Part shown: piece by piece, positions 5,806-62,307 of the stretch | Numbering within the stretch: position 1 is the stretch's first letter | Layout: every line of letters starts with the position of its first letter | Assembly (NCBI RefSeq): GCF_002843605.1 | Contig: NZ_CP025263.1 | Span: forward strand, 3,377,501 to 3,441,500 | Direction: 5' to 3' | Length of the DNA: 64,000 bases | Source of the DNA: Pseudomonas sp. S09G 359 | GTDB taxonomy: Bacteria > Pseudomonadota > Gammaproteobacteria > Pseudomonadales > Pseudomonadaceae | Notes under the pieces: generated by a model | The model's database searches: none | What the model was told of the DNA's origin: nothing | What the model saw: only the letters and a program-made list of their open reading frames with translations | Translations under genes and position numbers: made by a program

Positions 5806-7145
5806 GCATGAAACCTGTGTTCATCGCCTTATTGCTGGTCAGCGCCAATGCCCAGGCGGCCATGGGCCCGTTCGATGTGTACGAGCAGGCCCTGCGCAAC
5901 GACCCGGTATTCCTCGGCGCCCTCAAGGCGCGCGACGCCGGCCTGGAAAACCGTGCTATCGGCCGCGCTGGCCTGTTGCCCAAGCTGTCCTACAACTACA
6001 ACAAGGGCCGCAACAACTCCCAGGCGACCTTGCCCGACGGGCGCGGCGGCAGTTACCACGACGACCGCAACTACAACAGCTACGGCTCGACCTTCAGCCT
6101 GCAACAGCCGCTGTTCGACTACGAGGCCTACGCCAACTACCGCAAGGGCGTGGCCCAGGCACTGTTCGCCGATGAAAGCTTTCGCGACAAGAGCCAGGCG
6201 CTGCTGGTGCGGGTGCTGAGCTATTACACCCAGGCGCTGTTTGCCCAGGACCAGATCGACATTGCCCGCGCCAAGAAAAAGGCATTCGAGCAGCAGTTCC
6301 AGCAGAACCGGCACCTGTTCGAGCAGGGCGAGGGCACGCGCACCGATATTCTCGAAGCCGAGTCGCGCTATGAACTGGCCACGGCCGAAGAGATCCAGGC
6401 GCTGGATGAGCAGGATGCTTCGCTACGTGAACTGGGCGCATTGATTGGCGTGCAGAGCGTCGACATCCATGACCTTGCGCCGTTGAACCAGGGTTTCGCC
6501 GCGTTCACCCTGGCACCGGCCAACTTCGACACTTGGCATGAGCTGGCGATCAGCAACAACCCCACGCTCGCGTCCCAACGCCAGGCGCTGGAAGTGGCGC
6601 GTTTTGAAGTGGAGCGCAACCGTGCCGGGCATTTGCCCAAGGTCACCGCCTATGCCAGCTCGCGCCAGCAGGAGTCTGACAGCGGCAACACCTACAACCA
6701 GCGTTATGACACCAATACCATTGGTGTCGAGGTCAGCCTGCCGCTGTACGCCGGTGGCGGTATTTCGGCCTCCACGCGCCAGGCCAGCCGCGCCATGGAG
6801 CAGGCCGAGTACGAGCTGGAAGGCAAGACCCGCGAAACCCTGATCGAGCTGCGCCGGCAGTTCAGCGCGTGCCTGTCGGGGGTGAGCAAATTGCGCGCTT
6901 ATCAAAAGGCCCTGGCGTCCGCGGAAGCGCTGGTGGTGTCGACCAAGCAAAGCATCCTCGGTGGCGAGCGCGTCAACCTTGATGCCTTGAACGCCGAGCA
7001 GCAGCTCTACAGCACCCGTCGCGACTTGGCCCAGGCGCGCTACGACTATTTGATGGCCTGGACCAAATTGCATTACTACGCCGGCAACCTGCGTGACACC
7101 GACCTGGCCAAGGTGGACGAGGCCTTTGGCCCGACACCGCACTGA
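5802..7145 (+). CDS. aprF: Type I secretion outer membrane protein AprF
   Basis: A 447-residue TolC-family trimeric outer membrane channel. A signal peptide ends near residue 18-20 (LLLVSANAQA). The mature protein has the repeated helical hairpins of the family, with FDVYEQALRNDPVFLGA near the start and the homologous DTWHELAISNNPTLASQ halfway, showing the internal duplication. It completes the AprDEF exporter. The start overlaps the aprE stop; a second Met at codon 3 is also possible. Confidence 0.95.
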   Translation: MSMKPVFIALLLVSANAQAAMGPFDVYEQALRNDPVFLGALKARDAGLENRAIGRAGLLPKLSYNYNKGRNNSQATLPDGRGGSYHDDRNYNSYGSTFSLQQPLFDYEAYANYRKGVAQALFADESFRDKSQALLVRVLSYYTQALFAQDQIDIARAKKKAFEQQFQQNRHLFEQGEGTRTDILEAESRYELATAEEIQALDEQDASLRELGALIGVQSVDIHDLAPLNQGFAAFTLAPANFDTWHELAISNNPTLASQRQALEVARFEVERNRAGHLPKVTAYASSRQQESDSGNTYNQRYDTNTIGVEVSLPLYAGGGISASTRQASRAMEQAEYELEGKTRETLIELRRQFSACLSGVSKLRAYQKALASAEALVVSTKQSILGGERVNLDALNAEQQLYSTRRDLAQARYDYLMAWTKLHYYAGNLRDTDLAKVDEAFGPTPH

Positions 7146-7181
7146 TTCGCTTCTTCGACCAATAACAAAAGAGGCAATACC

Positions 7182-8594
7182 ATGGGTGTGTTTGACTATA
7201 AAAACTTCGGGGCCGAGGGCTCCAAAGTGCTGTTCGCCGATGCCATGGCGATCACCTTGTATACCTACCACAACCTGGATAACGGCTTTGCCGTGGGCTA
7301 TCAGCACAACGGGTTGGGTCTCGGTCTGCCGGCCACGCTGGTCGGTGCGCTGCTCGGCAGCAGCGACTCACAGGGTGTAATTCCGGGTATCCCCTGGAAC
7401 CCCGATTCGGAAAAAGCCGCCCTCGACGCGGTGCAAAAAGCCGGCTGGACGCCCATCAGCGCCAGCGCCCTGGGCTACGCCGGTAAGGTTGACGCCAGGG
7501 GCACGTTCTTTGGTGAAAAGGCCGGCTACACCACGGCCCAGGTCGAGGTGCTGGGCAAGTACGATGACGCGGGCCAACTGTTGGAAATCGGCATTGGCTT
7601 TCGTGGCACCTCCGGCCCACGGGAAAGTTTGATCAGCGATTCCATCGGCGACCTGGTCAGCGACCTGCTCGCAGCGCTGGGGCCCAAGGATTATGCGCGG
7701 AACTACGCCGGTGAAGCCTTTGGCGGCTTGCTCAAAAACGTCGCCGACTATGCCACCGCCCATGGCCTGAGCGGTGCGGACGTGTTGGTCAGCGGCCACA
7801 GCCTGGGCGGCTTGGCTGTCAACAGCATGGCCGACTTGAGCAGCAGCCAATGGGCGGGTTTCTATAAGGATGCCCACTACGTGGCCTACGCCTCGCCGAC
7901 CCAGAGCGCCGGCGACAAGGTGTTCAATGTCGGCTATGAAAACGACCCGGTGTTTCGCGCGCTGGATGGCTCATCCTTCAATTGGTCATCCCTGGGCGTG
8001 CACGACACACCCCATGCCTCGACCACCGACAATATTGTCAGCTTCAACGACCACTACGCGTCGACGCTGTGGAATGTGCTGCCGTTTTCCATCACCAACC
8101 TGCCAACCTGGATTTCGCATTTGCCCAGCGGTTATGGCGACGGCATGACGCGCATCCTGGAGTCCGGGTTCTATGAGCAGATGACCCGCGACGCCACGAT
8201 TATCGTCGCCAACCTGTCCGACCCGGCCCGGGCCAACACCTGGGTGCAGGACCTCAACCGCAATGCCGAGCCGCACAAGGGCCCGACCTTTATCATCGGC
8301 AGCGACGGCAACGACCTGATCCAGGGCGGCAAGGGCGCGGACTTTATCGAGGGTGGCAAGGGTAATGACACGATTCGCGACAACAGCGGGCATAACACCT
8401 TGTTGTTCAGCGGCGATTTTGGCCAGGACCGGGTGATTGGCTATCAGCCCACGGACACGCTGGTGTTTAAAGATGTGCAGAGAAATATGGACGTGCGCGA
8501 ACACGGCTCGGATACGGTGATCAGCTTCGGCGCGGATACAGTGACGTTGGTGGGGGTGGTTGGGCTGACGGGGGAGGGGATTATCATCGGTTAA
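7182..8594 (+). CDS. lipA: Family I.3 extracellular lipase (LipA/TliA type)
   Basis: A 470-residue triacylglycerol lipase without signal peptide, secreted by a type I system. The nucleophile elbow GHSLG places Ser207; Asp255 (in ENDPVF) and His313 (in WISHLP) fall at the positions expected for the family I.3 triad. RTX repeats (GSDGNDLIQG, GGKGADFIEG, GGKGNDTIRD) lie near 365-395 and the C-terminus is hydrophobic. RBS AGAGG precedes ATG 7182. In several P. fluorescens strains lipA ends the aprX-inh-aprDEF locus, often after two autotransporter protease genes; here it follows aprF directly. At 470 residues it is lipase-sized, not the longer polyurethanase PueA. Confidence 0.93.
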   Translation: MGVFDYKNFGAEGSKVLFADAMAITLYTYHNLDNGFAVGYQHNGLGLGLPATLVGALLGSSDSQGVIPGIPWNPDSEKAALDAVQKAGWTPISASALGYAGKVDARGTFFGEKAGYTTAQVEVLGKYDDAGQLLEIGIGFRGTSGPRESLISDSIGDLVSDLLAALGPKDYARNYAGEAFGGLLKNVADYATAHGLSGADVLVSGHSLGGLAVNSMADLSSSQWAGFYKDAHYVAYASPTQSAGDKVFNVGYENDPVFRALDGSSFNWSSLGVHDTPHASTTDNIVSFNDHYASTLWNVLPFSITNLPTWISHLPSGYGDGMTRILESGFYEQMTRDATIIVANLSDPARANTWVQDLNRNAEPHKGPTFIIGSDGNDLIQGGKGADFIEGGKGNDTIRDNSGHNTLLFSGDFGQDRVIGYQPTDTLVFKDVQRNMDVREHGSDTVISFGADTVTLVGVVGLTGEGIIIG

Positions 8595-50727: not shown

Positions 50728-52533
50728 GTGGCGAGAAAGGTGAGCAAAGAAATTCGCACGGCCGTATCAATCCATACCTCCAAGCCGATTCGAGTTAAGG
50801 TGTCACCCCTGAGGATCCCAGCACCCTGGAAACCCGCAAACGTTACCGTTACTCAATCCGCAGTACCGTATGAAGCTCTAGATGTGAGTGATGCAGAGTT
50901 GCGTCTTGCCCGGAAGCGAGATGCCATTTTCAAGCAAGTTAGGGATGGCATGATAGGTCAAGCTAAAGCGATGGAGCTATTGGAAGTAAAAAAAAGTCAA
51001 TTCTACAATCTGTATAAATCCTTCTCAGAATCTAATAGCTATCTTGACTTGGCGAGAAAGAAGAGGGGAACGAAGCCGGGCAGCCATAAGCTAACGCCCG
51101 GGCAGCTAAGTGCTCTTGAACTTTCGTTTCAGGAGAAATACAACGGGCCGAGTGCATCATCAGCTAAAGTCTGGAAGTACGCTCAAGGGCTAGTTCCTGA
51201 AGATGAGTTGCCGCCCAGTAAGTATCAGTGTAGGAAATTTGTAGCTGCAAAGCCCGAAAAAGTTAAATACTACAAAAAATATGGAAAGGAGGCTGGTGAT
51301 AATAAGTATATAGCTAAACCTAAGAAAAAGATCATGGAACGTGTGCTTCAGCAAGTGCAGATGGATCACACTATGGTCGACATCATGTTGGTCGACGAAT
51401 TTGATCGTGATGTATTGGTAGGCCGTCCTTGGTTGACGATAATAATGTGCGCCCTTACCAGGGTGATACTTGGTCTGCATCTGAGCCTCCGCCCCCCTAG
51501 TTTAAGAACAGTTGCAAGTGCGTTGGCTTTTGCAGTTCTGGATAAATGTACTTTTTTAGAGTCCTGGGGGCTTGACTCCAGAGTTTACCCATATTACGGG
51601 ATACCCTTCCTAATTTACACAGACAATGCTGCTGAGTTCACTAGCCCTAGGTTCATTGCAATGTGCAAAAGATGGGGGATGGATTGGGATCATCGCCCAA
51701 TCGGCAAGAAGTGGTACGGTGGCTTGATCGAACGCGTTATAGGCACATTTATGAACGAAATACATTTTCTGCCAGGAAATACAGGCAGCAATGTGATTCA
51801 GCGGGCGGGGTTAACCCCAGAACTTGATGCTAAGTATGATATTGCGCAATGCGCTAAATACCTGTTTGATCAAGCGATTATTTACCACGGGACGCATCAT
51901 GAAGGTCTGGGGAGTACTCCGCGTCAGGCGTGGAATTCTTACGATTCGCAGGGGGCTCTAGACCATGAAAGAGTGATCCTGCAAGATCAGAGGGAACGCT
52001 TCGAAATTGAGTTTTTGGCTCCATCTTATAATCATACAATTCAGATATATGGAATAAATTTTTCAGGCAGAAGATATCACAGTCCCGAACTAGATCCTTA
52101 CATCGGCGCAAGAAATGTTGAGATACGGTATCAGTCCGGCGACCTGAGCTCGATATGGGTATTGGTTCCTGGAAGATTTCTACATGTTCCGTGCACCTAC
52201 ACTAAAAACCGCCTCTCCAACAACTGGGAGTCTTATTGCAGCCATAAGGCTTTGTCTAGTGCCAGGCATGTCGGCCACCGCGCGCCAGCGGGGCTCATTG
52301 ATGATGAGCATGCTCTGGAAGCCCAGAGGCGACAGCGCGAACTAGCAATTGAAGTGGAGACTCAGCCTAACAAAAAGCCGAGACCACCTAAAGATATCAC
52401 GGCGCAGACAGAGCGGCTACCCACCCCCCCGGCGATCCAGCCAGTAATTGGCGCGCCGCGTATCATCCAAAGCAGTCGGGGCGTTCCGGAGATTATGCAA
52501 CCTACGCTAATAATTGACAGGTTCAAAAAATGA
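50728..52533 (+). CDS. TniA/TnsB-type DDE transposase
   Basis: A 601-residue transposase of the Mu/TnsB/TniA group. Catalytic residues in the RNase H-like core: Asp213 (VQMDHTMVD), Asp299 (IYTDNAAEF) and Glu335 (GGLIERVIG), a DD(35)E spacing. The N-terminal 150 residues hold helix-turn-helix-like DNA-binding regions (GMIGQAKAMELLEVKKSQFYN-type text); the beta-barrel follows the core (GINFSGRRYHSPELDPYIG). A Pro/Arg-rich tail from about 530 may contact the ATPase. The start is GTG 50728 or GTG 50740; neither has a clear ribosome site. Its stop overlaps the ATPase start as ATGA. Confidence 0.9.
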   Translation: MARKVSKEIRTAVSIHTSKPIRVKVSPLRIPAPWKPANVTVTQSAVPYEALDVSDAELRLARKRDAIFKQVRDGMIGQAKAMELLEVKKSQFYNLYKSFSESNSYLDLARKKRGTKPGSHKLTPGQLSALELSFQEKYNGPSASSAKVWKYAQGLVPEDELPPSKYQCRKFVAAKPEKVKYYKKYGKEAGDNKYIAKPKKKIMERVLQQVQMDHTMVDIMLVDEFDRDVLVGRPWLTIIMCALTRVILGLHLSLRPPSLRTVASALAFAVLDKCTFLESWGLDSRVYPYYGIPFLIYTDNAAEFTSPRFIAMCKRWGMDWDHRPIGKKWYGGLIERVIGTFMNEIHFLPGNTGSNVIQRAGLTPELDAKYDIAQCAKYLFDQAIIYHGTHHEGLGSTPRQAWNSYDSQGALDHERVILQDQRERFEIEFLAPSYNHTIQIYGINFSGRRYHSPELDPYIGARNVEIRYQSGDLSSIWVLVPGRFLHVPCTYTKNRLSNNWESYCSHKALSSARHVGHRAPAGLIDDEHALEAQRRQRELAIEVETQPNKKPRPPKDITAQTERLPTPPAIQPVIGAPRIIQSSRGVPEIMQPTLIIDRFKK

Positions 52534-53441
52534 CTATGGACGCATCTTCAGATTACGATCACGTTTTGCTAGAGCATCGCTATAAGCTTGATCTCTCTGC
52601 AACTCAACGTATCGAAATTTGCAGGCATGACTTTTGGATCGATACTCCAAAGTTTGCTTTGATGTTCGAATGTATAGGCCATATGTTGTATACAAGGAAC
52701 CAGATTCAAGCATCTTGCATATTTATACACGGAGAAGGGGGGGACGGAAAAACGGCCGCGTGGCATCGCCTGAAGTTTCTAAGCGCGAACTCCGATAAAA
52801 AAATGGTCTTTGTTGAGCTGTCCGAAAATACGAGTCGCCATAAACTCCTTGATCGGATCTGTGAGGCCTTTGGCATTGAGGTCGGTGGCCGCAACACAGC
52901 CAGGAAGGAAGACTTAATACTAAATTACATAAGGGTTAACAACGTATGTGCCATCGTCCTTGATGAGCTGAATGATGCCCTTCTACAGCCATATGCTCAA
53001 AAACGTACGCTTCTTTCGCTGATGCGTAATCTGTCGGGTACTCTGAAATTGTGTGTAATCGCCTTTGGCAATACGGAGGCACGCGACATCGTTATGCTGG
53101 ATCGAATCATCGACCGTCGTTTTGTGCAGTTTGTTGTCAAAGATTGGGAGATGGGGCAGGATTTTGTTAATTTCATAGCAACCTATGAGGCTCATCTCCC
53201 GCTTAAGCTCAAATCCGACCTCGCATCCCCGGAGCTTAGAACGTTAATCCATACCGAGTCGTTAGGGATCATGGATAACGTCGTCAAGATCATGAAATGT
53301 CTAGCCATGGATGCTATTGACTCAGGAGCAGAGCGCATCGCGCCGGAGCAGTTCCCTCGTTTGCGTGATATTGCGATGCGGTTCGGATTTAACTTGCATA
53401 TTCCCAAGGTAGATCGCAATGCAGATAAATCGAAGAAGTAG
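52530..53441 (+). CDS. TniB/TnsC-type AAA+ transposition ATPase
   Basis: A 303-residue AAA+ protein. Walker A GEGGDGKT follows the strand SCIFIH; Walker B is CAIVLDELND; a sensor region GNTEARDIV and arginine-rich RIIDRRF follow. Residues 28-45 (EICRHDFWIDTPKFALMFEC) match the TniB N-terminal pattern. In Tn5053 and Tn7 this ATPase links target selection by TniQ/TnsD to the transposase. It is translationally coupled to the transposase and overlaps the next gene by 23 bp. Confidence 0.88.
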   Translation: MTMDASSDYDHVLLEHRYKLDLSATQRIEICRHDFWIDTPKFALMFECIGHMLYTRNQIQASCIFIHGEGGDGKTAAWHRLKFLSANSDKKMVFVELSENTSRHKLLDRICEAFGIEVGGRNTARKEDLILNYIRVNNVCAIVLDELNDALLQPYAQKRTLLSLMRNLSGTLKLCVIAFGNTEARDIVMLDRIIDRRFVQFVVKDWEMGQDFVNFIATYEAHLPLKLKSDLASPELRTLIHTESLGIMDNVVKIMKCLAMDAIDSGAERIAPEQFPRLRDIAMRFGFNLHIPKVDRNADKSKK

Positions 53442-54114
53442 TTTGACCCCATGCCAGCAAGATATCCATGATGCGATATCAGCTCAGCTGGCCTTGGCTC
53501 AGCCGACCATAATTATAATTAACGCTGAGCCAGGATCAGGCCTTTCGACATTAATGGAATGTCTTGGGGAAGATATGGGGTCAGCATGTCTTAAATTCGT
53601 ATCAAGACCAGCGATGAGTGACCTCAACTTGCTTGAGACGTTTTACCATCACTTGGGGCTGGGCGGTGAGGGTATCTCACACCGGGCACCGATTCCAGCC
53701 TTTATATATCCTCTCATTGAACTGCAGTCGATTATGAGACTGCTTGTTGAGGATATCGATGATTTTGCTGTGACTATTCCAATGAGAAAAATGACTATAG
53801 GGCACCTTAGTAAAATTGCCTCGGCACTGCCGGGCATGAGCTTTATCATTTCTCAGACATTGTCTAGATGGGATCACGATCGCAGTATCCAGCATAGTGA
53901 TATTAAGGGGGTTCAGGGGCGTGACGAATATCATTTGCGTAGCTTCGCAGACCTTGGTCAGTATATTGCTCACTTTAAGAGCTTCGCCGCCTCAATTGGA
54001 TTAAACAATGTTTCTAGCTCAGCATTAGGGGAGCTCTATAAAAGAACAGGAGGTAATCTGGCTTCCACCATGTTGCATCTCTGCCATCCTCTTTACATGC
54101 GCCAATGGAAATAA
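53419..54114 (+). CDS. Second ATPase-like protein of the transposition operon, Walker A lysine missing
   Basis: A 231-residue protein with the outline of a TniB-like AAA domain. The P-loop position reads NAEPGSGLST, with Leu42 where the Walker A lysine should be (codon CTT, no sign of a frame problem). The Walker B-like strand is RLLVEDIDDF, followed by LPGMSFIISQT. C-terminal RTGGNLASTMLHLC resembles the AAA lid. It probably cannot hydrolyse ATP normally and may be a structural partner of the upstream ATPase. It overlaps both neighbours (23 bp and, with the alternative TniQ start, 10 bp). Confidence 0.75.
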   Translation: MQINRRSSLTPCQQDIHDAISAQLALAQPTIIIINAEPGSGLSTLMECLGEDMGSACLKFVSRPAMSDLNLLETFYHHLGLGGEGISHRAPIPAFIYPLIELQSIMRLLVEDIDDFAVTIPMRKMTIGHLSKIASALPGMSFIISQTLSRWDHDRSIQHSDIKGVQGRDEYHLRSFADLGQYIAHFKSFAASIGLNNVSSSALGELYKRTGGNLASTMLHLCHPLYMRQWK

Positions 54115-54131
54115 GGACGCAGGCATTTCAT

Positions 54132-55106
54132 ATGAGTGTACCAGTCCAGAACGAGCTGTTTTCATCTTGGTTGTACCGCCAAGGAGCCGTTTCCATCTAC
54201 AGTGATTTATCCATCCACCAGCTTTTGGGGATGTATCAACGCTGCATGCAAAACGATGATTTTGATCCCGACTTTAATTTTTCCAGCGAGTTCAGCAGGT
54301 GCGCTCTGAAGCAGTTGGGCCTGGTAGATTCTGACGTTTCGTTCTTCGCCCCGAAAAGCACTTGGCTGATACCACGCTATTATCGTGGAGCCTTTTGCTA
54401 TGAGTGCTTTTGTGATCATATTCGATCATTCAAGCTTCCTACAATGCTTACTGAGTGGTGCTCAGTCACACAAACTGTTTGCCCTGTGCACCTTGTTTCA
54501 TTGGTCGACACGCCAGGAAAACACAATTATAAACTTAATATGGCGGTGAGGCTTTTTTCTGACTACCATTCACAGTCAAGTTTTTTGGCATTCCCCCATC
54601 CTAATCTGACCCCGCAAGTGATAGATGCATTACTGTCGATACAGTCCTTTATTTCCAGCGTTGAGGCTAGAGCCTTAGATAGTGGATTTGACTCTGAGTG
54701 GCGGTTGATTCGGACGATAATACAAATATTTCTTTATCCTCGACATGGCATAATTGCCTCTCTGTTTCCCAAGAAGTCCGTTGGGGCTGAGGTTCAACTC
54801 TTTCGATACAATCTGCATTTGGGCCCCTTAACAAACCCGGTTACCCGCAGGCAGTTGGCGATACTGCTGACGGGCTTGGTTTTGGATGTTTTGGAGGACA
54901 GTCAACGCTCAGAAGCTGAGCAGTACCTCAAGTTTTTTGACCAACGTTATTATTTTTTTAATAGCACCGCCGGGCTAGGTCGATCCGCTAACGTCTTTAT
55001 TCCTGAGCATGGGAGATCACTTTTTGCCCAACTGGCTGAGCTTTCAACCAAAATCCGCAGCCCTTATCTAGCAGAATTTGTTGCTGGGTTTGGTGGCAGG
55101 CACTGA
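54132..55106 (+). CDS. TniQ/TnsD-family target-selection protein
   Basis: A 324-residue TniQ protein. The N-terminus PVQNELFSSWLYRQGA is the family hallmark; a zinc finger follows (AFCYECFCDHIRSF with EWCSVTQTVCPVHL, the spaced Cys and Cys-Pro-x-His pattern). TniQ binds target DNA or a partner and recruits the ATPase. ATG 54132 has GCAGG 8 bases upstream; ATG 54105, overlapping the previous gene, is the alternative. At this length it is closer to short TniQ than to full TnsD. Confidence 0.87.
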   Translation: MSVPVQNELFSSWLYRQGAVSIYSDLSIHQLLGMYQRCMQNDDFDPDFNFSSEFSRCALKQLGLVDSDVSFFAPKSTWLIPRYYRGAFCYECFCDHIRSFKLPTMLTEWCSVTQTVCPVHLVSLVDTPGKHNYKLNMAVRLFSDYHSQSSFLAFPHPNLTPQVIDALLSIQSFISSVEARALDSGFDSEWRLIRTIIQIFLYPRHGIIASLFPKKSVGAEVQLFRYNLHLGPLTNPVTRRQLAILLTGLVLDVLEDSQRSEAEQYLKFFDQRYYFFNSTAGLGRSANVFIPEHGRSLFAQLAELSTKIRSPYLAEFVAGFGGRH

Positions 55107-55127
55107 TAGTTATCATTTGGAGGAAAT

Positions 55128-55604
55128 ATGCTGTTCCAGTTCGTGACTCAAGTACGCTTCTCTTTGCCGCTTGCGGTCAGCGAAAATGGTGCTGTTTTTG
55201 GTGCACAAGCAAATCTAGGGATGTTCGTTTCATTCCCTTCGAGGCGAATACTCGCGTGGTTTCACGCGGCTGAGCGGCTCAGGAGCAAGGAGGGCGCACT
55301 ACGGCTCATGCTTCCCGGCCCGGTGCCCTCATTCGTCACCAAACTTGTGTGGATCAATGCACATGGTCTCACCGAAACGCACCGAACCGCTGATTTGATC
55401 GACGCATTTATGGAGCTCTTCTTTGACTACCCCGTTTCCGTCTATGGAAGCCAGGCACTAGTACGGCATATCCCCAGGCCTGTCTTTGACTTGCTCATCA
55501 ACGATACTGTGTCTCGTTACAACCGATATTTTATGGTAGCGGCTGGGAGCAATAGTGCAGGCGTCCTTGACAAGTTGGATTCGGCCCCACGGCTATTCAG
55601 TTGA
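55128..55604 (+). CDS. Unknown protein, fifth gene of the transposition operon
   Basis: A 158-residue protein I do not recognise. It begins MLFQFVTQVRFSLPLAVS and includes WFHAAERLRSKEGALRLMLPG, TKLVWINAHGLTETHRTADL and MELFFDYPVSVYG. No membrane segment, signal or catalytic motif. A strong ribosome site (GGAGGA) 6 bases upstream and a 21-bp gap from tniQ argue that it is made with the transposition proteins. It might be an accessory target or regulatory factor; that is inference from position only. Confidence 0.65.
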   Translation: MLFQFVTQVRFSLPLAVSENGAVFGAQANLGMFVSFPSRRILAWFHAAERLRSKEGALRLMLPGPVPSFVTKLVWINAHGLTETHRTADLIDAFMELFFDYPVSVYGSQALVRHIPRPVFDLLINDTVSRYNRYFMVAAGSNSAGVLDKLDSAPRLFS

Positions 55605-55667
55605 TTGTGTCTTTCATAGCATTTGTCACGTGCCAGAAGTCTTGTACTTTTAGATAGTGCCATTACC

Positions 55668-55713
55668 GACATCCCTTCTTGGAGGGATCACCTAGCGCAG
55701 GGCTAGTGATCCG
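55668..55713. terminator. Double hairpin between convergent genes
   Basis: ATCCCT/AGGGAT (about 55672-55690) and GGATCAC/GTGATCC (about 55686-55713) form two overlapping hairpins between the transposition operon and the XRE gene stop. No long T-run follows, so they may be alternative structures or a protein-binding site. Confidence 0.4.
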
Positions 55714-55727
55714 TCAACCCGAAATAA

Positions 55728-56201
55728 TCATTCTGGCTCACGCCAGTAACGACTGACCGTCATCTTGTTCACATCCAGATTCTGAGACGCCTGCGCCTGG
55801 GTTAAGCCCTGGGCTTTGCACTCCTGAATAGCGGTCTTCAAATCTCGATCAATCACTCGGCCGGCTGGCCTGCTGCGTAGCCCATTGTCATCCAACTCTG
55901 CCCGCGCTGCCGCGAGTGTGCCGGCGGCATCCAGTTCGCGCATCTGGTCTGCGAATCTCTCCACGAGCGCATCAACAGTTATGCCTTCCTGGATCAGCGT
56001 GGCTGCGCCGACTAGCAATAGGGGAGACGCCCCGTAGGCTTCCGACAAGTCCTGCAGCTTGTCCAATGTGGGGCTCGACTTGCCGTGCTCAAGCTGACTC
56101 AGGTACTGACGATTGCTCCCCTCGGGGATTGACTCTTGGGTCAACCCTTTGTGAGCTCGCAGCGCGCGAAGGATCGCGGCTAAAGGTACCTTCATCGACA
56201 C
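55728..56201 (-). CDS. XRE-type regulator with C-terminal second helix-turn-helix
   Basis: A 157-residue protein. The N-terminal HTH (LAAILRALRAHKGLTQESIP then NRQYLSQLEHGKSSPTLDKL) is XRE type. The C-terminus (DLKTAIQECKAQGLTQAQAS then QNLDVNKMTVSRYWREPE) looks like a second HTH of resolvase/recombinase type. Start: GTG 56201 has GAGGA 6 bases upstream; ATG 56207 and ATG 56195 are alternatives. It probably represses its own promoter, which contains an inverted repeat at 56238-56279. Confidence 0.8.
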   Translation of the reverse strand: MSMKVPLAAILRALRAHKGLTQESIPEGSNRQYLSQLEHGKSSPTLDKLQDLSEAYGASPLLLVGAATLIQEGITVDALVERFADQMRELDAAGTLAAARAELDDNGLRSRPAGRVIDRDLKTAIQECKAQGLTQAQASQNLDVNKMTVSRYWREPE

Positions 56202-56237
56202 AGGCATTCCTCAAAACCGAGGATGTAGCCATGTTGT

Positions 56238-56279
56238 GCCGTAACACTCTACCGTATATAGTAGTCGTACAGTTACGGC
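56238..56279. promoter_or_regulatory. Inverted repeat at the XRE gene promoter
   Basis: GCCGTAAC (56238-56245) and GTTACGGC (56272-56279) are perfect 8-bp arms; the 26 bases between include TATATAC-type -10 text read on the minus strand and a smaller CTAC...GTAG repeat. A likely operator for the adjacent XRE regulator. Confidence 0.5.
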
Positions 56280-56599
56280 GTTGGCGCGTGGCTCGACCTG
56301 CCTCGACATGGGTACAGGCAGGCGTGTGAGGGCAGCAGCTCAGGGCGACATCTCTCTACCAGATATCAATTTAGCCCTAAACCGTCGATTGTGATTTTTA
56401 TCCTCTACCCCTGGGCGAGCTGCAGAGCCTAGGTCAGCCGAGGTGACGTCGGATGTTGGTAATCAGCTGCAGAGGCGGCCTCGGAACCGGATGAAGGGCT
56501 CAAAGCGCGAAGTCGATAGCGGTGGTCTCCGGAATCGGTGTGCAGCGAACAGAACAGCGTGATGTGCCGAGAGGCCTGGATTTAAGCGAGGAACCACCT

Positions 56600-56965
56600 G
56601 TGAGCCACACAGCATTGCCAGACCCTTCGGCTTTCATGGTCAAAACCTTCGGGTCGACGATAAGAGACCTCAGCTTCAACAGGCTACCAACGGTGATTCA
56701 AAAGGCGAAAGCGGCGATACCAGATGACGACGTGGTGGGTTTTTTTTTATGCGCGCTGTATCGACCTCCGCGGATGACCGGGTTGATCTTCTGTAACCGC
56801 ATAAGCCTCCTGCCTCCGGGTCTGCCAGCTCATACGCCGCCAGTTGTAAGGCGGTTTCACCGCAACGGTTACCTGGTGGTGGAGGCGGACACGGGCGGAT
56901 TGTTTGTGGTGGCCCACCATTACTTCGAAAACGGTGCTATCAGGCCTTTTTTCGAAGTGCATTGA
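56600..56965 (+). CDS. Small paralogue A of the island family, unknown
   Basis: A 121-residue protein. Its core GFFLCALYRPPRMTGLIFCN, then GYLVVEADTGGLFVVAHHYF and ENGAIRPFFEVH, matches the protein at 60950 residue by residue in many places and the proteins at 57018, 58283 and 58608 more distantly. GTG 56600 has GAGGAA 6 bases upstream; ATG 56636 would give a 109-residue form. Small alpha/beta protein, no catalytic residues evident. Function unknown. Confidence 0.65.
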   Translation: MSHTALPDPSAFMVKTFGSTIRDLSFNRLPTVIQKAKAAIPDDDVVGFFLCALYRPPRMTGLIFCNRISLLPPGLPAHTPPVVRRFHRNGYLVVEADTGGLFVVAHHYFENGAIRPFFEVH

Positions 56966-57017
56966 ACACAGGTCATCAACACAGGACATCACGCTGGGAC
57001 AGATCGAGTGAATTGCT

Positions 57018-57368
57018 ATGCCTGCAGACTATAAATCCTTGAACAGCTTGCAGACCGCCGCGGAGGTCAAGCCGACCTCGATTCCCGCGAGTGTCGAGCG
57101 TGCTATAGCCGTGCAGTTTGAATTTTCGGCCACCGCTTACATGTGCTGCGCGAGCGTGGATCACGAAATCAACTGCTTGGTAGGTGTGGTTTACCAGGAA
57201 CAACGCGGGCGTTTTCGAGATGGAGCGACCGTTCGGACGTCCTCGCTACGTCGAAGGTTCGAGAGCCACGGATACCACGTCTTCGAAACAAGCAATGGCA
57301 GCTCATACGTTGTTTGCGAGTGGGCGCCGGACGGAATGAGCCCACGATTTTCTGGCGTACGCCACTAG
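57018..57368 (+). CDS. Small paralogue B of the island family, unknown
   Basis: A 116-residue protein. After a variable N-terminus it shows AYMCCASVDHEINCLVGVVY, then GRFRDGATVRTSSLRRRFES and HGYHVFETSNGSSYVVCEWA. The order strand, DG-x-V-(R/Q)TS-x-L helix, GY strand, YVV strand is shared with paralogues A, C, D and E. I believe small Pseudomonas proteins annotated DUF6957 share this pattern, but I could not check. It lies 52 bp after paralogue A. Confidence 0.65.
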   Translation: MPADYKSLNSLQTAAEVKPTSIPASVERAIAVQFEFSATAYMCCASVDHEINCLVGVVYQEQRGRFRDGATVRTSSLRRRFESHGYHVFETSNGSSYVVCEWAPDGMSPRFSGVRH

Positions 57369-57548
57369 GCATTTGGGACACGAATCCCGCAAGTAAAGAC
57401 GTTACAGGCCACATGAACGATCAAACGTATTCGGAAACAGCAAAGCTCATAACGGTGCCGGCGAGGTGGTCAAACAGGTGTGCGAATACTCACACCGAGC
57501 AATCTCTAAACCACCTTGAAACACAGCAAATTCATAAGTGACCGAGCG

Positions 57549-58283
57549 ATGAAGCTACGAATTTACTCAGACCTGCATAACGAATTTCACCGCTTTGATC
57601 CGCCGGCGCTCGATCCCGACGTCGACTTGGTCATTCTTGCGGGTGACATCGACAAGAAGGCCCGTGGCGTGAAGTGGGCAAATGAAACGTTCAGTTGCCC
57701 AACCGTGTACATCAGCGGCAACCACGAATTTTATGACGGCCACTTCGATCGAACTCTTCAAAAAATGCGAGACGCCGCTGAGCCCCATGTCCATCTGCTC
57801 GAGAACCAAAGCATCATCATCAACGGCACTCGCATCTTGGGCACCGCAGCGTGGACGGACTTTTCCGCAACGGGCGACCAGGTGGCTGCGAGCAGGATGG
57901 CTTGGGAGTGGATGAACGACTTCAACTACATCCGGGCTGATGCGGGATACCGACGCCTGAGACCCGATGACCTCGTCACTCGCAACCATGCCGCCAAGGC
58001 CTGGCTGGCCCAGCAGCTTGCCCAGCCTTTTGAAGGCAAAACGATCGTCGTCACTCACCACGCCCCATCACCTGTAGTTGTGGGAACGAAGCATGACGGG
58101 CATCTGAATGCGGCTTACACCAACGACTGGCCCAGACTCATCGAGAAGGCGGATTTGTGGGTCTTTGGCCATACGCACCAAGCTGTGGACGTCGAGCTGG
58201 CAGGCTGCAGAGTGGTCTCCAATCCCCGGGGTTATCCCAACGAGCAGACTGGCTTTGACCCGTTTTTTGAGATTTCGATTTGA
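57549..58283 (+). CDS. Calcineurin-like metallophosphoesterase
   Basis: A 244-residue phosphoesterase with the full dimetal motif set: YSDLHNEF (D-x-H), LAGDIDKKA (GD), SGNHEFYDG (GNH), TIVVTHHAPSP (H) and VFGHTHQAVD (GHTH). Members hydrolyse phosphodiesters of nucleotides or nucleic acids; the substrate here is unknown. ATG 57549 is preferred to 57516 because it gives the MKLRIYSDLH start; AGCG-type RBS is weak. Its stop overlaps the next small gene as TGATG, so it is co-translated with paralogue C. Confidence 0.88.
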   Translation: MKLRIYSDLHNEFHRFDPPALDPDVDLVILAGDIDKKARGVKWANETFSCPTVYISGNHEFYDGHFDRTLQKMRDAAEPHVHLLENQSIIINGTRILGTAAWTDFSATGDQVAASRMAWEWMNDFNYIRADAGYRRLRPDDLVTRNHAAKAWLAQQLAQPFEGKTIVVTHHAPSPVVVGTKHDGHLNAAYTNDWPRLIEKADLWVFGHTHQAVDVELAGCRVVSNPRGYPNEQTGFDPFFEISI

Positions 58284-58624
58284 TGACCAATTTTTCCCAT
58301 AAGCGTGTCGCGGAGAAGGAAGCCGTCGAGCGTCAGAGCCAGGAGATTCCTAGTGCCGTCATCCGAGCTCAAGCCATGGATTGGGGTGTGACCGTTGATG
58401 CTTATCTATACGATGCGGCAAGGGTAGGGCAGCGATATGCAGCGATCGTGTATGGGGATAAAGCCGGGGCTAGTCTCGACGGCATGACCGTTGCCACCCC
58501 ACCGCTGGAACTTGTGAAAGCCCGGTCGGGATATAAGCTGATGCGTACTCCAGGCGGGGATCAGCACTTTCTGATCGTGAGTGAGCTGGGCGCCGAGGGA
58601 CATGCTAATGACATCCAGCATTGA
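58283..58624 (+). CDS. Small paralogue C, coupled to the phosphoesterase, unknown
   Basis: A 113-residue protein: a charged helical start (EKEAVERQSQEIPSAVIRAQ), then VDAYLYDAARVGQRYAAIVY, LDGMTVATPPLELV, SGYKLMRTPGGDQHFLIVSE. The second half keeps the strand/DG/GY/G-x-x-(Y/F)(V/L)(V/I)V order of its neighbours. Start ATG 58283 overlaps the phosphoesterase stop; its own end overlaps paralogue D by 17 bp. The tight coupling suggests a shared function with the phosphoesterase. Confidence 0.65.
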   Translation: MTNFSHKRVAEKEAVERQSQEIPSAVIRAQAMDWGVTVDAYLYDAARVGQRYAAIVYGDKAGASLDGMTVATPPLELVKARSGYKLMRTPGGDQHFLIVSELGAEGHANDIQH

Positions 58625-58931
58625 GGTTCCTACCGAACTTGTTCAAGCTGCATCGCTGAGCTTCAAATTTAGGATCAGTGGATTTCTATGGCGCGCGTTC
58701 CCTCACGGGGCGTGCCTGGCTGGTGAGATTCACGGGGATTCGAGTGAGCGCTTTCTGGAGGGTGGTCTGATACAGACCTCAGCCATCATGCAACTGACTA
58801 GGGAGCATGGGTATTTGCTTGCCCATACGTTCACGGGCAGCTGCTATGTGCTCGTCCAGCCGGCCGGCGCCGTGGAACAGTATTTTGGACACCTCTATAC
58901 GCACGAGGTACCACAGGGATTGGAGGATTGA
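58608..58931 (+). CDS. Small paralogue D, unknown
   Basis: A 107-residue protein: FRISGFLWRAFPHGACLAGE, then FLEGGLIQTSAIMQLTREHG and YLLAHTFTGSCYVLVQ. GAGGGA 7 bases before ATG 58608 decides the start within the end of paralogue C. The stop overlaps the next start as TGATG. Pattern shared with A, B, C and E; function unknown. Confidence 0.65.
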   Translation: MTSSIEVPTELVQAASLSFKFRISGFLWRAFPHGACLAGEIHGDSSERFLEGGLIQTSAIMQLTREHGYLLAHTFTGSCYVLVQPAGAVEQYFGHLYTHEVPQGLED

Positions 58932-59335
58932 TGCATCGACTACATATTGCGGAGGCCATCGCGCTCGACGGCGAGCCTCTGTCTGGGGCGTCCGAAGCGG
59001 AAGCCGAGCTTATCAAGACACGTGTCGCAGAAACGGGTAAAGCATACTGTGCTGCGGTTGCTTGGGTCATTATTGATGTACTCGATGTGGATGCCGACCA
59101 GTTGGCTGCCATAGGACGGTTACCCATTGTCTTGTTCACCCATAGTGTGCTGCTTCACAGTTCCGGAGATTATGAGAACAACGAGCGCATCAAGACCGGC
59201 TACGCGACCAGCTACGATGGCCGGGGCATCTTTGAAACCAGTGACACGATTTTTGTGCTCGTGGGCCAGGGCTTCAGAAAGTCTGTCTCGATCGAGCTTC
59301 TGAATCAGGTTCCCTCTAGATCTTGGGCACCTTAA
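58931..59335 (+). CDS. Small protein F, possible distant relative of the paralogue family
   Basis: A 134-residue protein: an acidic N-terminal half (GASEAEAELIKTRVAETGKAY, split by length), VIIDVLDVDADQL, then LFTHSVLLHSSGD, RIKTGYATSYDG and GIFETSDTIFVLVGQGF. The end resembles the I-(Q/R)T ... ET-x-(N/D)T-x-(Y/F)VL-x-G pattern I associate with Pseudomonas DUF6957 proteins. TGATG coupling to paralogue D places C, D and F in one translation unit with the phosphoesterase. Confidence 0.6.
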   Translation: MHRLHIAEAIALDGEPLSGASEAEAELIKTRVAETGKAYCAAVAWVIIDVLDVDADQLAAIGRLPIVLFTHSVLLHSSGDYENNERIKTGYATSYDGRGIFETSDTIFVLVGQGFRKSVSIELLNQVPSRSWAP

Positions 59336-59458
59336 CTCAATTGCCTTCATGCGGCGTTTAAGAATCGAAGGACGAGATGCCCGTGTGGCCCCCATAGAGC
59401 TCCTGCTTTAAAGGATAAGAAAGCGATACTCAAAGGAAGACGTCCCAGTGAGGTCAAT

Positions 59459-60796
59459 ATGAATACGGATATTCTCGATGCTTTAAAGAGGCTATGGGAG
59501 CTCCAGCAGCTTGGGCCTGACGGGCTATGGAAGGAACCCGCCTTCGATGAGTTGCGAAAGGCGTGTGCGGCCAAGTATCAGCAAGGTAAGGGAACGTTCG
59601 GGCTCACATTCGCCTTGGATCATGCGCTGAAATCGTTGGGCCTGGCGTGCTTGTCTCCATCGTCAAGGCAGTCCAGCTCGTTTGACCCAACCCTCGCCTC
59701 GAGCATGCTTGAAGCTGCGTTCACCCAGAAGACGATACGACGTCGTTACCTGTGCCCGCTCGACTTGGCTGAGCAGATTCCACCAATGACTTTCGGAAAT
59801 GCTAGGGTCGCGGTGCTCACTGCTGCGGAGCTAGAGGTGCTCTTCGATAGGTCGCGACTCGCCAGGTACTATCCCAATCAGGATCTCAATTTCGAGGGTT
59901 TCTCTCAATTTCACTGGCTCATAGTTGAAGAGATTGTAGCGACGGGAAAGGATGCTGGTGATCGAGCTGTGCCTGCCTTCTCGATGATGATGAGTAGAGA
60001 CTTCGGTGAGATTGATCCTCATAAAAGCCGTTTCCCAGCTGCTGTAGAGAAAGCGCTTTTTTTCTTGCTGCTCGCGCGGTGGGAGGAGTGGGCGATGATG
60101 CCCGAGGTCGATTGGCGAGGTTTTCGGATCCCTTGGATTTATCAGCTAGACGATGACTTATTTGTCGCGCCATCAATCCCGCGAAGCCCAGACAGCCTGT
60201 CTTGGGAACCGTATATTTACCAGGATCAATGGGGAGAGCCTGAGGAGATTCAGAGACCGGTAGAGCTAAGGCTTACTGATGCCGCCACCGAATTCCTTGC
60301 GGGCCTAGGAGATGCCCACTGGCAAGCCTTCCAGTCTGCCTTGGACTCTGAGCTGTTCGAAACTCCGGTCATGCATTTTCTGGTTCGAGGATTTCTGTCG
60401 GATGGCATCGACGAGTTCATGGCCCACTTGACCACCGTCGAGGCGGCCCTGGGGTTGCAAGATGACCATGATTTCAACAACCGTCGCAATTTCCCAAAAA
60501 TAAGTGCCACCAAGAGGGTCGCTAGGCGTTTAGCCGCGGCCCTGAATGATGCCGGTGCTGCTGACGTCTATGACGTGCTTTTCAACGTTAGGAGCGCGTT
60601 CATTCATGGCCGTGGGGGCATGAACAAAATACCCACCGCGCAGCGCGTTCAGGCACGAACGATTGCATCAAAAGCCTGTGCAGCCTTGGTTGATTTGGCG
60701 AGTCAGTCGAGGCAGTCCCGCGACGAAATTCTCGACGATTTATTGGAAAAAGGGGTGAGGCTCGTCGGTATGCACCAGCCCAAGCGCTCCCGGTGA
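59459..60796 (+). CDS. Large unknown protein with C-terminal HEPN-like R-x4-H motif
   Basis: A 445-residue protein with no signal or membrane segment. The N-terminal 300 residues are unrecognised. The last 140 residues are helical (DEFMAHLTTVEAALG, ATKRVARRLAAALNDAG) and contain R378-SAFI-H383 in NVRSAFIHGRGG, the R-x4-6-H signature of HEPN domains, of the Apea type. HEPN proteins are often RNases in phage defence or toxin systems. It follows the small-paralogue operon by 123 bp. The catalytic role is inference; a non-enzymatic HEPN is possible. Confidence 0.65.
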   Translation: MNTDILDALKRLWELQQLGPDGLWKEPAFDELRKACAAKYQQGKGTFGLTFALDHALKSLGLACLSPSSRQSSSFDPTLASSMLEAAFTQKTIRRRYLCPLDLAEQIPPMTFGNARVAVLTAAELEVLFDRSRLARYYPNQDLNFEGFSQFHWLIVEEIVATGKDAGDRAVPAFSMMMSRDFGEIDPHKSRFPAAVEKALFFLLLARWEEWAMMPEVDWRGFRIPWIYQLDDDLFVAPSIPRSPDSLSWEPYIYQDQWGEPEEIQRPVELRLTDAATEFLAGLGDAHWQAFQSALDSELFETPVMHFLVRGFLSDGIDEFMAHLTTVEAALGLQDDHDFNNRRNFPKISATKRVARRLAAALNDAGAADVYDVLFNVRSAFIHGRGGMNKIPTAQRVQARTIASKACAALVDLASQSRQSRDEILDDLLEKGVRLVGMHQPKRSR

Positions 60797-60949
60797 CTTC
60801 GCCCCGGCAAGGTGAGAGGTTGCGCAGGATGAGAATCAAACTTGCCGGCCTCGCGTCAAACGTATGGAGTCTACGATCAGACACTCAACTCCTGCTATGA
60901 GTGAGCGCTTCGCGCTCTAAGCCGAACACCTAGACACAAGCCTATTCAA

Positions 60950-61252
60950 ATGAGCGAATTCTGGTTCAACAAGCTACCCGACGCCATTGCAAAAGCACGA
61001 TCAGCTGTCGATCCTGAAGGGATTGCAGGGTACCTGCTGTGTGCCTTGGAGCGACGGGGAAGGGTGACGGGTATGCTGTTTTGCGATCTAAGCGGCGGCT
61101 TGCGCGACGGATCTCCTATTCAGACCGGCGTCATCGAAGACCGTGCCTGGGTAGAGGATTACGAGCTCGTCATCGCAGCTGACGGTGTCTATGTTGTCGC
61201 GCATCGTTCGCACGAGAACGGTGCTATGGATCCCGTCGTCTGCTGGCACTGA
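60950..61252 (+). CDS. Small paralogue E of the island family, unknown
   Basis: A 100-residue protein, the closest relative of paralogue A: FWFNKLPDAIAKARSAVD matches FNRLPTVIQKAKAAIP, and GYLLCALERRGRVTGMLFCD matches GFFLCALYRPPRMTGLIFCN, ending VYVVAHRSHENGAMDPVVCW against LFVVAHHYFENGAIRPFFEV. Small, soluble, no motif. The two copies flank the other paralogues, the phosphoesterase and the HEPN-like gene. Confidence 0.68.
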   Translation: MSEFWFNKLPDAIAKARSAVDPEGIAGYLLCALERRGRVTGMLFCDLSGGLRDGSPIQTGVIEDRAWVEDYELVIAADGVYVVAHRSHENGAMDPVVCWH

Positions 61253-61661
61253 CCTAGGCATGGATCGCACCGGCCTCCCGCGGCTGCTTACCTTATCCAC
61301 CTCGGCTATACGGACAGTATGAGTCCACCTGGAGAATTGCATTCCACTTGCCCACCCGTTTGCATCGCAACTGACCAGCCATTTGCATTCGACTTGCCCA
61401 GTTAATTGCCTCGGATCTGCCCAGCTCACTGGACGCGTCTTGACCGGCAGTAATCGGCCAAAAGCGGCCATTCGACTTGGTTTCCGTTCTGATTGAAATA
61501 CCATCGGTCTCAGCAGGTGCCCATGTATAGGCATGGCACCCGGAGGCCATCATGTTCGTCTCATCATTGAAGACCGATGTGACTACAGCTACCCTATTCC
61601 GTATAGGCATAGATATCCGGGCTAGATAACGCCTTCTTTTTCCGTCCACCACCACTAAATG
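61253..61661. other. 409-bp gap with tandem repeats and insertion sequence debris
   Basis: No gene. It holds the 23-bp-period repeats at 61337-61428 and a 25-codon frame at 61552-61629 ending LFRIGIDIRAR, vaguely like the N-terminus of an IS110-type transposase but too short to claim. Confidence 0.45.
61337..61428. repeat. Four tandem 23-bp-period repeats, probable insertion sequence end
   Basis: Units begin at 61337, 61360, 61383 and 61406, exactly 23 bp apart: TTGCATTCCACTTGCCCACC, TTGCATCGCAACTGACCAGC, TTGCATTCGACTTGCCCAGT, TTGCCTCGGATCTGCCCAGC. A weaker fifth may start at 61429. Regular direct repeats of this kind occur at transposase-binding ends, for example of IS21-family elements. 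No transposase gene adjoins. Confidence 0.65.
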
Positions 61662-62213
61662 TTACAACTCGGATAGCCTAACTATCATTTTATAAGCGTC
61701 TTCACGAGCAATGGGGATTACTGATCGATGAAGGATGATTCCTTCAATCAAAGCGTCTAGCGCGACTGCTGACAAAGGGGAGAAATAGAGTTCGAGTGAA
61801 ACTCTGATTTCGAGCATCCAGTCTCTCATAACATTCTTCATGACAGGGTTACGGCCCGCAAAAATATAGAGTTCGCAAGTCAGTTGGATCGTTCTAGTGC
61901 CGAATGTGGATCTTTCAAAGATTACATCCACTATCGCATGGCAAGCGTCTTCTTTAGTCTTTGCTTTTCGAATTGCTGCTGCAAATCGAGTAGATACGCA
62001 TTGAGCCAACAGCTGAAATGCCTCTAGCAGCAGCTCCTGCATGCTCGGAAAATAGTGTGTAAGTGAACCGAGAGGCACGCCCGACAGTTCGGAAATTTTT
62101 CGGTACGTTGTGCATGCAACCCCGTGCAGCTCGATGCAGTCTAGGGTTGCGTTGAGGATATGCTCCCTACGATGAGGGTCTTGCCGCCAAGTCTTCCGTT
62201 TCTCGTTCGTCAT
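61662..62213 (-). CDS. TetR-family transcriptional regulator
   Basis: A 183-residue regulator: HTH near the N-terminus (REHILNATLDCIELHGVACT then YRKISELSGVPLGSLTHYFP), then a helical ligand-binding domain. It probably represses itself and the MFS gene through the perfect palindromes at 62256 and 62308, which lie just upstream of its start. The effector is unknown. Confidence 0.92.
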   Translation of the reverse strand: MTNEKRKTWRQDPHRREHILNATLDCIELHGVACTTYRKISELSGVPLGSLTHYFPSMQELLLEAFQLLAQCVSTRFAAAIRKAKTKEDACHAIVDVIFERSTFGTRTIQLTCELYIFAGRNPVMKNVMRDWMLEIRVSLELYFSPLSAVALDALIEGIILHRSVIPIAREDAYKMIVRLSEL

Positions 62214-62255
62214 GCATGCTCCTATCTCAGCCAGCTGACATTAGCATAGGACGTA

Positions 62256-62277
62256 AAATCGTACAACTGTACGATTT
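62256..62277. promoter_or_regulatory. TetR-type operator palindrome 1
   Basis: Arms AAATCGTACA and TGTACGATTT, perfect 10-bp inverted repeats with a 2-base spacer, 43 bp upstream of the TetR gene start. Confidence 0.8.
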
Positions 62278-62307
62278 CATTGACCTTGATTAGCGCTCAC
62301 AGTAGGA

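What the first reader, a model, noticed from the sequence alone, without database searches (positions are those of the whole stretch)
56600..61252. Array of small divergent paralogues around a phosphoesterase and a HEPN-like protein
Five proteins of 100-121 residues (56600, 57018, 58283, 58608, 60950), and perhaps the one at 58931, share the order: hydrophobic strand, (R/D)DG or EGG with T/S and a helix, GY strand, (Y/F)VV strand. The first and last are clearly homologous and bracket the set. C, D and F are start-stop coupled to the phosphoesterase. Such arrays of diverging copies are typical of immunity or conflict loci, so this is the best candidate here for an undescribed system.
Basis: partly seen in the sequence, partly recalled or inferred. 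Interest (0 to 1): 0.75.

Follow-up and report, generated by a model that had tools for sequence, protein, structure and literature searches.

The report
Mobile Pseudomonas phosphoesterase and small-protein operon
Five small related proteins beside an enzyme gene turn out to belong to a recurring, apparently undescribed gene set that travels on mobile DNA in many Pseudomonas species, with its own switch gene and swappable parts, and whose purpose, perhaps in conflicts between bacteria and mobile elements, is still unknown.

Summary
The array is real. A, B, C, D and F are homologous. The sixth, E, is DUF6957 (74.5 bits, cut-off 27), probably a remote relative. They belong to a recurrent module: divergent XRE regulator, metallophosphoesterase with intact active site, one to five small proteins, often DUF6957, sometimes a HAD hydrolase. 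Of 80 loci picked by the phosphoesterase alone (best of 253), 76 have a small protein and 75 the regulator. The small-protein family is in 69 of 199 Pseudomonas genomes and none of 368 others of the class. An operator-like dyad lies between regulator and operon. The HEPN-like protein is an occasional neighbour (3 of 199 genomes, one a fragment). The 'diverging immunity copies' reading fails: the paralogues form old subfamilies shared across species, and blocks swap at gene borders. Best functional guess, low confidence: a repressor-controlled counter-defence or takeover operon of mobile elements, with phage relatives; a defence role or element upkeep is not excluded. My searches of the held open-access library showed no paper on it.

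The parts
55728..56207 (-). divergent XRE-type regulator (159 aa; N-terminal HTH_3, weak C-terminal HTH_23 match)
   Evidence: Pfam HTH_3 54.1 bits; a homologue on the strand opposite to the enzyme in 75 of 80 phosphoesterase loci
56366..56385 (.). operator-like dyad TCAATTTA-N4-TAAACCGT between regulator and operon
   Evidence: motif TCRATTTA-N4-TAAATYGA within 3 mismatches in 42 of 48 regions before a phosphoesterase or small-protein gene, 0 of 48 stretches 300 bases on, 0 of 18 regions before DUF6957 or c5; with a pattern fitted to this site, the only match in the 6.77 Mb genome at <=1 mismatch
56600..56965 (+). small protein A (121 aa, A/F subfamily)
   Evidence: phmmer to F 9e-21; tree
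57018..57368 (+). small protein B (116 aa, B subfamily); modelled
   Evidence: AlphaFold2 mean pLDDT 81.0, blocks 21-100 at 90-97
57549..58283 (+). calcineurin-like metallophosphoesterase (244 aa), metal-site motifs intact
   Evidence: PF00149 50 bits; SDLH, GD, GNHE, H170, GHTH invariant in 20 of 20
58283..58624 (+). small protein C (113 aa), overlaps the phosphoesterase stop by 1 base
58608..58931 (+). small protein D (107 aa), overlaps C by 17 bases
58931..59335 (+). E, DUF6957 protein (134 aa), overlaps D by 1 base
   Evidence: PF22275 74.5 bits, cut-off 27; AlphaFold2 mean pLDDT 90.9
59459..60796 (+). HEPN-like protein H (445 aa): occasional neighbour, not core
   Evidence: 3 of 199 genomes, one a fragment; RSAFIHG invariant in 4 of 4; no Pfam family
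60950..61252 (+). small protein F (100 aa, A/F subfamily), last of the array
50728..55106 (+). Tn7/Tn5053-like transposition genes just upstream (setting, not part of the module)
   Evidence: Mu-transpos_C and TniB; 54105 clusters with a 670-aa homologue that reaches TniQ 25.9 bits, below its cut-off of 27

Best explanation
It is a mobile, repressor-controlled operon found almost only in Pseudomonas: XRE regulator (divergent), metallophosphoesterase, then small beta-fold proteins, commonly C-type, D-type, DUF6957, optionally a HAD hydrolase, with extra A/F and B copies in this locus. Shown by computation: membership, usual order, coupling, intact enzyme site, operator-like dyad, old paralogue classes of which three are largely tied to a place, block exchange at gene borders, setting in a roughly 73 kb accessory island beside Tn7-like transposition genes. 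Inferred: the regulator binds the dyad and holds the operon shut in a settled host; on entry into a new cell, before repressor builds up, the operon is read; the phosphoesterase hydrolyses a phosphodiester (nucleotide signal or nucleic acid) and the small proteins, in which I see no enzyme motif, bind partners or ligands, each class its own, to blunt the host's or a rival element's defences. Least certain is this last step (counter-defence/takeover rather than defence or upkeep).
For: Recurrence: 76 of 80 phosphoesterase-picked loci have a small protein, 75 the regulator, 57 DUF6957, 21 HAD; 107 of 112 small-protein hits in 199 genomes lie within 3 kb of DUF6957, a close phosphoesterase or the regulator, while 0 of 18 distant phosphoesterases lie near a small protein (2 of 18 near DUF6957). 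Dyad. Mobility: two related plasmids, transposition genes within about 6 kb in 6 of 43 loci and in MT835554; relative G004 lacks the island at this site. Phage kinship: enzyme relatives in 148 of 50,697 phage records and PHROG 1649, 151 bits; the model of B matches 17 viral-library proteins at Foldseek E <= 0.001; B and D match small phage PHROGs (5e-7 to 8e-4 and 9e-5 to 2e-4); a KIL1 protein and a Bitten ORF match both profiles. Block exchange after the phosphoesterase and after E. A phage metallophosphoesterase with phosphodiesterase activity that subverts host defence is reported (PMC12287305, abstract and section 10 read); kinship to ours was not tested.
Against: No member is a known counter-defence protein; no sequence match in the PDB, none of the six small proteins in PADLOC. 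Only 1 of 67 viral contigs with a relative of the enzyme carries the rest, so it is not a phage operon as such. At sequence level the phage link of the small proteins is thin: best tblastn of B 0.02 (12 records at E <= 0.1); A, C, E and F match no PHROG better than 0.01. Known defence genes also lie nearby, which fits defence equally. 26 clusters hold DUF6957 alone and 32 the regulator alone; the regulator itself is only 75% identical in L069, against 86% for the enzyme. Substrate, repression and timing are untested. Profile comparison of small proteins with DUF6957 gives only 5-18% probability, though its p-value (0.0017) beats 13 unrelated neighbour clusters (0.046-0.87).
Confidence: 0.38

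Rival explanations
1. A defence system: the operon protects the host and its element against phages or other elements, the phosphoesterase being effector or signal regulator and the small proteins sensors with swappable specificity.
For: Accessory island, Tn7-like setting; 3 of 7 neighbours that I chose matched PADLOC families (LeoABC-like in L077, DrmD-like and PDC-S68/RecD-like in L078), and L068 has an AAA_21 + HNH gene pair; C-D-E block exchanged among close relatives; phosphoesterase reaches PADLOC PDC-S10 at 44 bits, but over 105 of 223 positions only.
Against: No effector-like nuclease, pore or NADase recognised in the core; relatives of the enzyme and of the fold are carried by phages themselves; no background rate of defence genes was computed.
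Confidence: 0.25
2. Element upkeep or metabolism: a repressor-controlled salvage or regulatory operon (phosphoesterase plus HAD phosphatase) that helps the element or host under some condition, unrelated to conflict.
For: Two phosphatase-type genes in one operon (HAD in 21 of 80 loci); strong purifying selection on regulator, B and enzyme (dN/dS 0.06-0.14).
Against: Patchy presence (69 of 199 genomes), absence from the sampled rest of the class, block exchange and phage relatives are unusual for metabolism.
Confidence: 0.27
3. A polyimmunity array: small immunity proteins protecting against a polymorphic secreted toxin.
For: Several diverged small paralogues in tandem.
Against: Subfamilies shared across species, C, B and D largely tied to place; one or two copies in 82 of 87 clusters; the constant partners are an enzyme and a regulator; no toxin noticed among recurrent neighbours (mostly unannotated).
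Confidence: 0.05
4. The small proteins are alternative subunits of the phosphoesterase (one complex, with the small proteins setting substrate or place).
For: Translational coupling PE-C-D-E; most C-type copies sit directly after the enzyme.
Against: Many clusters hold small proteins without a close phosphoesterase within reach (19 with DUF6957 only, 13 with DUF6957 and regulator), and L099-L101 pair a C-type protein with c12 and no enzyme; C-D-E is exchanged against a constant enzyme.
Confidence: 0.15

Closest known systems
DUF6957 (Pfam PF22275)
   Same: E is a member over the cut-off; broadly similar order of helix and strands in the models of B and E
   Different: A-D and F are not members (B 15.4 bits against 27); 0 papers in the library hold the name
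Calcineurin-like metallophosphoesterases, PF00149 / PHROG 1649 of large phages
   Same: all metal-site motifs; 39% identity to Caulobacter phage CcrColossus
   Different: fixed operon with regulator and small proteins; none of the four phage neighbourhoods inspected has a convincing small-protein gene beside the enzyme (one weak hit of 13.7 bits 5.5 kb away)
Small uncharacterised phage proteins (PHROGs 8840, 13035, 11960, 2063)
   Same: B matches these four at 5e-7 to 8e-4, D two of them at 9e-5 and 2e-4; fold matches for B
   Different: function unknown there too; A, C, E and F match none better than 0.01
Nucleotide-signal sponges and nucleases (Acb2, Tad1, Tad2, Acb4, Acb1, Apyc1; PMC11722364, passages read)
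   Same: works-like idea only: small phage-type binders plus a phosphodiesterase
   Different: no sequence match to PDB chains; Acb4 is PF13876 by that paper, which none of ours matches
Tn7-like transposon cargo (PMC8649781, passages read)
   Same: TnsB/TniB/TniQ-like genes directly upstream
   Different: ends not identified; module also on plasmids and in loci without such genes in reach
SANTA / DNMT1 RFTS beta folds

Membership tests
DUF6957 (PF22275) | score over the curated cut-off of 27 bits | tested here: met
   E 74.5 bits; B 15.4 bits fails; no DUF6957 row for A, C, D, F
Calcineurin-like metallophosphoesterase | profile score and the metal-site motifs | tested here: met
   50 bits against 21.5; motifs invariant in 20 of 20
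Calcineurin-like metallophosphoesterase | phosphodiesterase or phosphomonoesterase activity | not testable with these tools
   -
HEPN | R-x4-6-H motif | tested here: met
   RSAFIHG in 4 of 4 homologues of H aligned
HEPN | match to a HEPN profile | tested here: not met
   no Pfam family for H at E <= 1, none for its 472-aa homologue at 0.1
Polyimmunity array | copies diverging within a locus rather than subfamilies shared across species | tested here: not met
   tree of 62 proteins: copies of one locus fall in different clades, the window's A and F excepted, which share the A/F clade
Polyimmunity array | a toxin gene in company | tested here: inconclusive
   none among recurrent neighbours noticed, but most neighbours were not annotated
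Known anti-phage system (PADLOC) | complete set of system proteins | tested here: inconclusive
   of 8 proteins only the enzyme matches, PDC-S10, half the profile
Nucleotide sponge (Acb2, Tad1, Tad2) | sequence kinship to solved sponges | tested here: not met
   0 PDB chains at E <= 1 for A2 and A3
Nucleotide sponge (Acb2, Tad1, Tad2) | oligomer that binds a cyclic nucleotide | not testable with these tools
   -
Tn7-like transposon cargo | transposition genes adjacent | tested here: met
Tn7-like transposon cargo | between the two transposon ends | tested here: inconclusive
   no convincing end pair found

The most novel reading that the evidence does not exclude
A Pseudomonas-specific conflict system in which a phosphodiesterase destroys, and a set of specialised small beta-fold binders captures, nucleotide immune signals (or inhibits several defences), with the binder block C-D-DUF6957 exchanged as a specificity cassette behind a constant enzyme; the binder fold would be a new, very widespread phage counter-defence fold.
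Probability: 0.2. Interest if true: 0.85.

Novelty: new variant of a known kind. Interest (0 to 1): 0.6.

Why it matters
About a third of sampled Pseudomonas genomes (69 of 199) carry members of this family, yet the name DUF6957 occurs in no paper of the searched library and my other searches listed none on the operon. A constant enzyme with exchangeable small-protein blocks and a candidate operator makes testable predictions (repressor, operator, substrate, specificity). If the small proteins prove to block defences, a fold that recurs among uncharacterised phage proteins gets a function.

Tried and rejected
HEPN-like gene as a core component: rejected (3 of 199 genomes; missing from L123 and L126). 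Polyimmunity: see rivals. Known families: PADLOC gave nothing for the six small proteins; Pfam and NCBIfam gave nothing over a curated cut-off for A, B, C, D, F or H, only sub-threshold rows. Solved homologues: none for enzyme or small proteins; the wider profile A4 gave four rows at E 0.6-1.3; Foldseek against the PDB gave no E <= 0.001 for either model. RNA families: none at the gathering threshold in 55000-62300. Sigma-70 promoter and terminator scans: no more than in shuffles. tRNA: none in the window. Transposon ends: no convincing inverted pair. Small proteins next to phage phosphoesterases: nothing convincing in four phages (one weak hit, 13.7 bits, E 0.0019, 5.5 kb from the enzyme in phage DLP_6). 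Papers: full-text searches were judged from listings of 0 of 0, 15 of 79, 15 of 35, 12 of 21, 0 of 0 and 6 of 6 papers; PMC12629846 on Pseudomonas island hotspots does not use the word phosphoesterase (passages).

Limits of counts. The genome scans score only part of the first-look candidates (for the window's genome 23 of 62, 12 of 43), so absences are less sure than presences. The dyad motif was derived from the same regions, so its count is partly circular; a first control with stretches directly behind the gene start gave 6 of 66, all six inside the annotated ORF start, five of them upstream of the aligned enzyme start, hence the cleaner control. One search counted 102 regions from two overlapping sets (56 within 3 mismatches, 0.4 expected from shuffles). 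Rows dropped: two of the 76 phosphoesterase rows were left out as second pieces of split genes (G045, G183); L037 was left out of the tree as a near copy of L036. Alignments A4 and A5 hold 60 and 61 proteins that I chose from the lists (26 listed; best 120 of 190; best 120 of 248) besides the window's own. One search shows 15 loci and nine, chosen by me; seven proteins chosen by me.
Full report
OBSERVATION. A, B, C, D and F are homologous: phmmer of six against six gives A-F 9e-21, B-D 1e-11, B-C 3e-8, C-D 4e-8 to 8e-8, A-B 1e-6, with weaker links from A and F to C and D (0.001-0.006) and none to E (best 0.31). E is Pfam DUF6957 (74.5 bits). The phosphoesterase, C, D and E are translationally coupled (overlaps of 1, 17 and 1 bases).

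THE MODULE. In 199 Pseudomonas genomes DUF6957 is in 67, the small-protein family in 69, a homologue of the window's regulator in 69, a homologue of the phosphoesterase in 56, of which 45 have one below E 1e-50, H in 3, one of them a fragment. Within 3 kb: 107 of 112 small-protein hits have DUF6957, a close phosphoesterase or the regulator; 44 of 56 close phosphoesterases have a small protein, 0 of 18 distant ones do (2 of 18 have DUF6957). Of 160 clusters, 21 hold all four, 17 lack only DUF6957, 13 lack only the phosphoesterase, 19 hold small protein and DUF6957 only; 26 are DUF6957 alone, 32 regulator alone, 8 phosphoesterase alone, 5 small protein alone. Small proteins per cluster that has any: one in 71, two in 11, three in 2, four in 2, five in 1; the window is the only five of 87. 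A second, named set picked by the phosphoesterase alone (the best 80 of 253 relatives, all 80 titled Pseudomonas) gives small protein 76, regulator 75, DUF6957 57, HAD hydrolase 21 of 80; the commonest order, in 12, is regulator<, phosphoesterase>, small>, DUF6957>. A second layout starts with DUF6957 or the c5 family. The HAD name rests on Pfam for two members. Outside the genus: small proteins in 0 of 368 other genomes of the class, DUF6957 in 1 of 368. The class search used A2 at 1e-5, the genus search A1 at 0.01, and both scored only part of the first-look candidates.

REGULATION. Between regulator and operon lies a dyad, TCRATTTA-N4-TAAATYGA. Within 3 mismatches it is in 42 of 48 regions where the phosphoesterase or a small protein comes first (6 of these inside the annotated ORF start), in 0 of 48 stretches starting 300 bases into the gene, and in 0 of 18 regions where DUF6957 or c5 comes first. 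In the window it is at 56366-56385, two mismatches; a slightly looser pattern finds only this site in the window, and a pattern fitted to it finds nothing else in 6.77 Mb at one mismatch or fewer. The motif came from these regions, so the first count is partly circular. That the regulator binds it is inference.

HISTORY. In a tree of 62 small proteins the copies of one locus fall in different clades, except that the window's A and F share one: C-type 1.00, B-type 1.00 (three members), A/F 0.99, D-type 0.90. C-, B- and D-type copies mostly keep their place in the operon; A/F copies occur at several places. So these are old, specialised paralogues rather than fresh copies. Regulator, B, enzyme and F evolve under purifying selection (dN/dS 0.06-0.24). 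Against two loci with an enzyme 86-91% identical, C, D and E are only 35-61% identical with high to saturated synonymous change; the regulator is 96% and 75% identical in the same two. P. asturiensis (L126) matches the window at 92.9% over 55738-58274 and then stops, at the end of the enzyme gene; L123 and L124 match to 59331, the end of E. Blocks are exchanged at gene borders.

SETTING. The window's copy follows Mu-type transposase, TniB and TniQ-like genes. Relative G004 runs from the left flank (window 48818) to G000 position 3,499,942 with about 1.4 kb between, so the window's copy lies in an accessory island of about 73 kb, which need not be one element. Other copies are on plasmids of Pseudomonas sp. 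NY11382 and P. asiatica, within about 6 kb of transposition genes in 6 of 43 loci, the window included, and in MT835554, labelled 'Bacteriophage sp.' but carrying such genes. Defence-like genes lie near several (3 of 7 chosen proteins), without a background rate.

MECHANISM. Enzyme: all metal-site motifs invariant in 20 of 20, so probably active; substrate unknown. Relatives occur in 148 of 50,697 phage records. The fold of B matches 17 viral-library proteins at E <= 0.001, while by sequence only B and D reach phage families. A phage metallophosphoesterase with phosphodiesterase activity that helps evade host defence has been published (PMC12287305; abstract and section 10 read), kinship to ours untested. 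I therefore put counter-defence or takeover first, at low confidence, with defence, upkeep and a plain enzyme complex as live rivals. Presence, order, coupling, dyad, exchange and island are shown; repression, induction on entry, substrate and targets are inferred.

VERDICT. Its purpose is open.

Noticed in passing
window:61337-61428: Three imperfect direct repeats with 23-base spacing (TTGCATTCCACTTGCCC-like) just after F, perhaps the end of a transposon or insertion element; one 11-base word recurs at 50302.
   Followed up: partly
L095:6458-7258 and L096:6339-7220: A small-protein domain fused to a further unknown domain of about 180 residues; no Pfam match for the L096 protein.
   Followed up: no
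L108 (MT835554.1): A record labelled Bacteriophage sp. carries TnsB/TnsC/TniQ-like genes, this module and a caspase-like ORF (the last by eye only); it looks like a transposon-bearing contig.
   Followed up: partly
L068:9017-10814 and 6189-7516: Same framework as the window with a different, unknown 318-aa gene in the slot between DUF6957 and the F-type protein; in G056 (L069) a C92 peptidase-like gene and the HEPN-like gene follow DUF6957.
   Followed up: partly
L070, L084, L088, L103, L104, L106, L107 (c5); L036, L037, L098 (c23): Two further small families, c5 (140-156 aa) and c23 (126-139 aa), sit in the same operons and look alike by eye.
   Followed up: no
L123:9421-9793: A second, partial copy of the DUF6957 gene (88% DNA identity) downstream of the intact one.
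   Followed up: no
window:62778-63923: An MFS-like gene (by eye) that G001 carries at 91% DNA identity about 15 kb from its own copy of the module, suggesting a shared island backbone.
   Followed up: no
window:60350-60453: A 104-base stretch of H matches 11 Agrobacterium plasmid records at 75%, so H has relatives beyond Pseudomonas; these records were not fetched.
   Followed up: no
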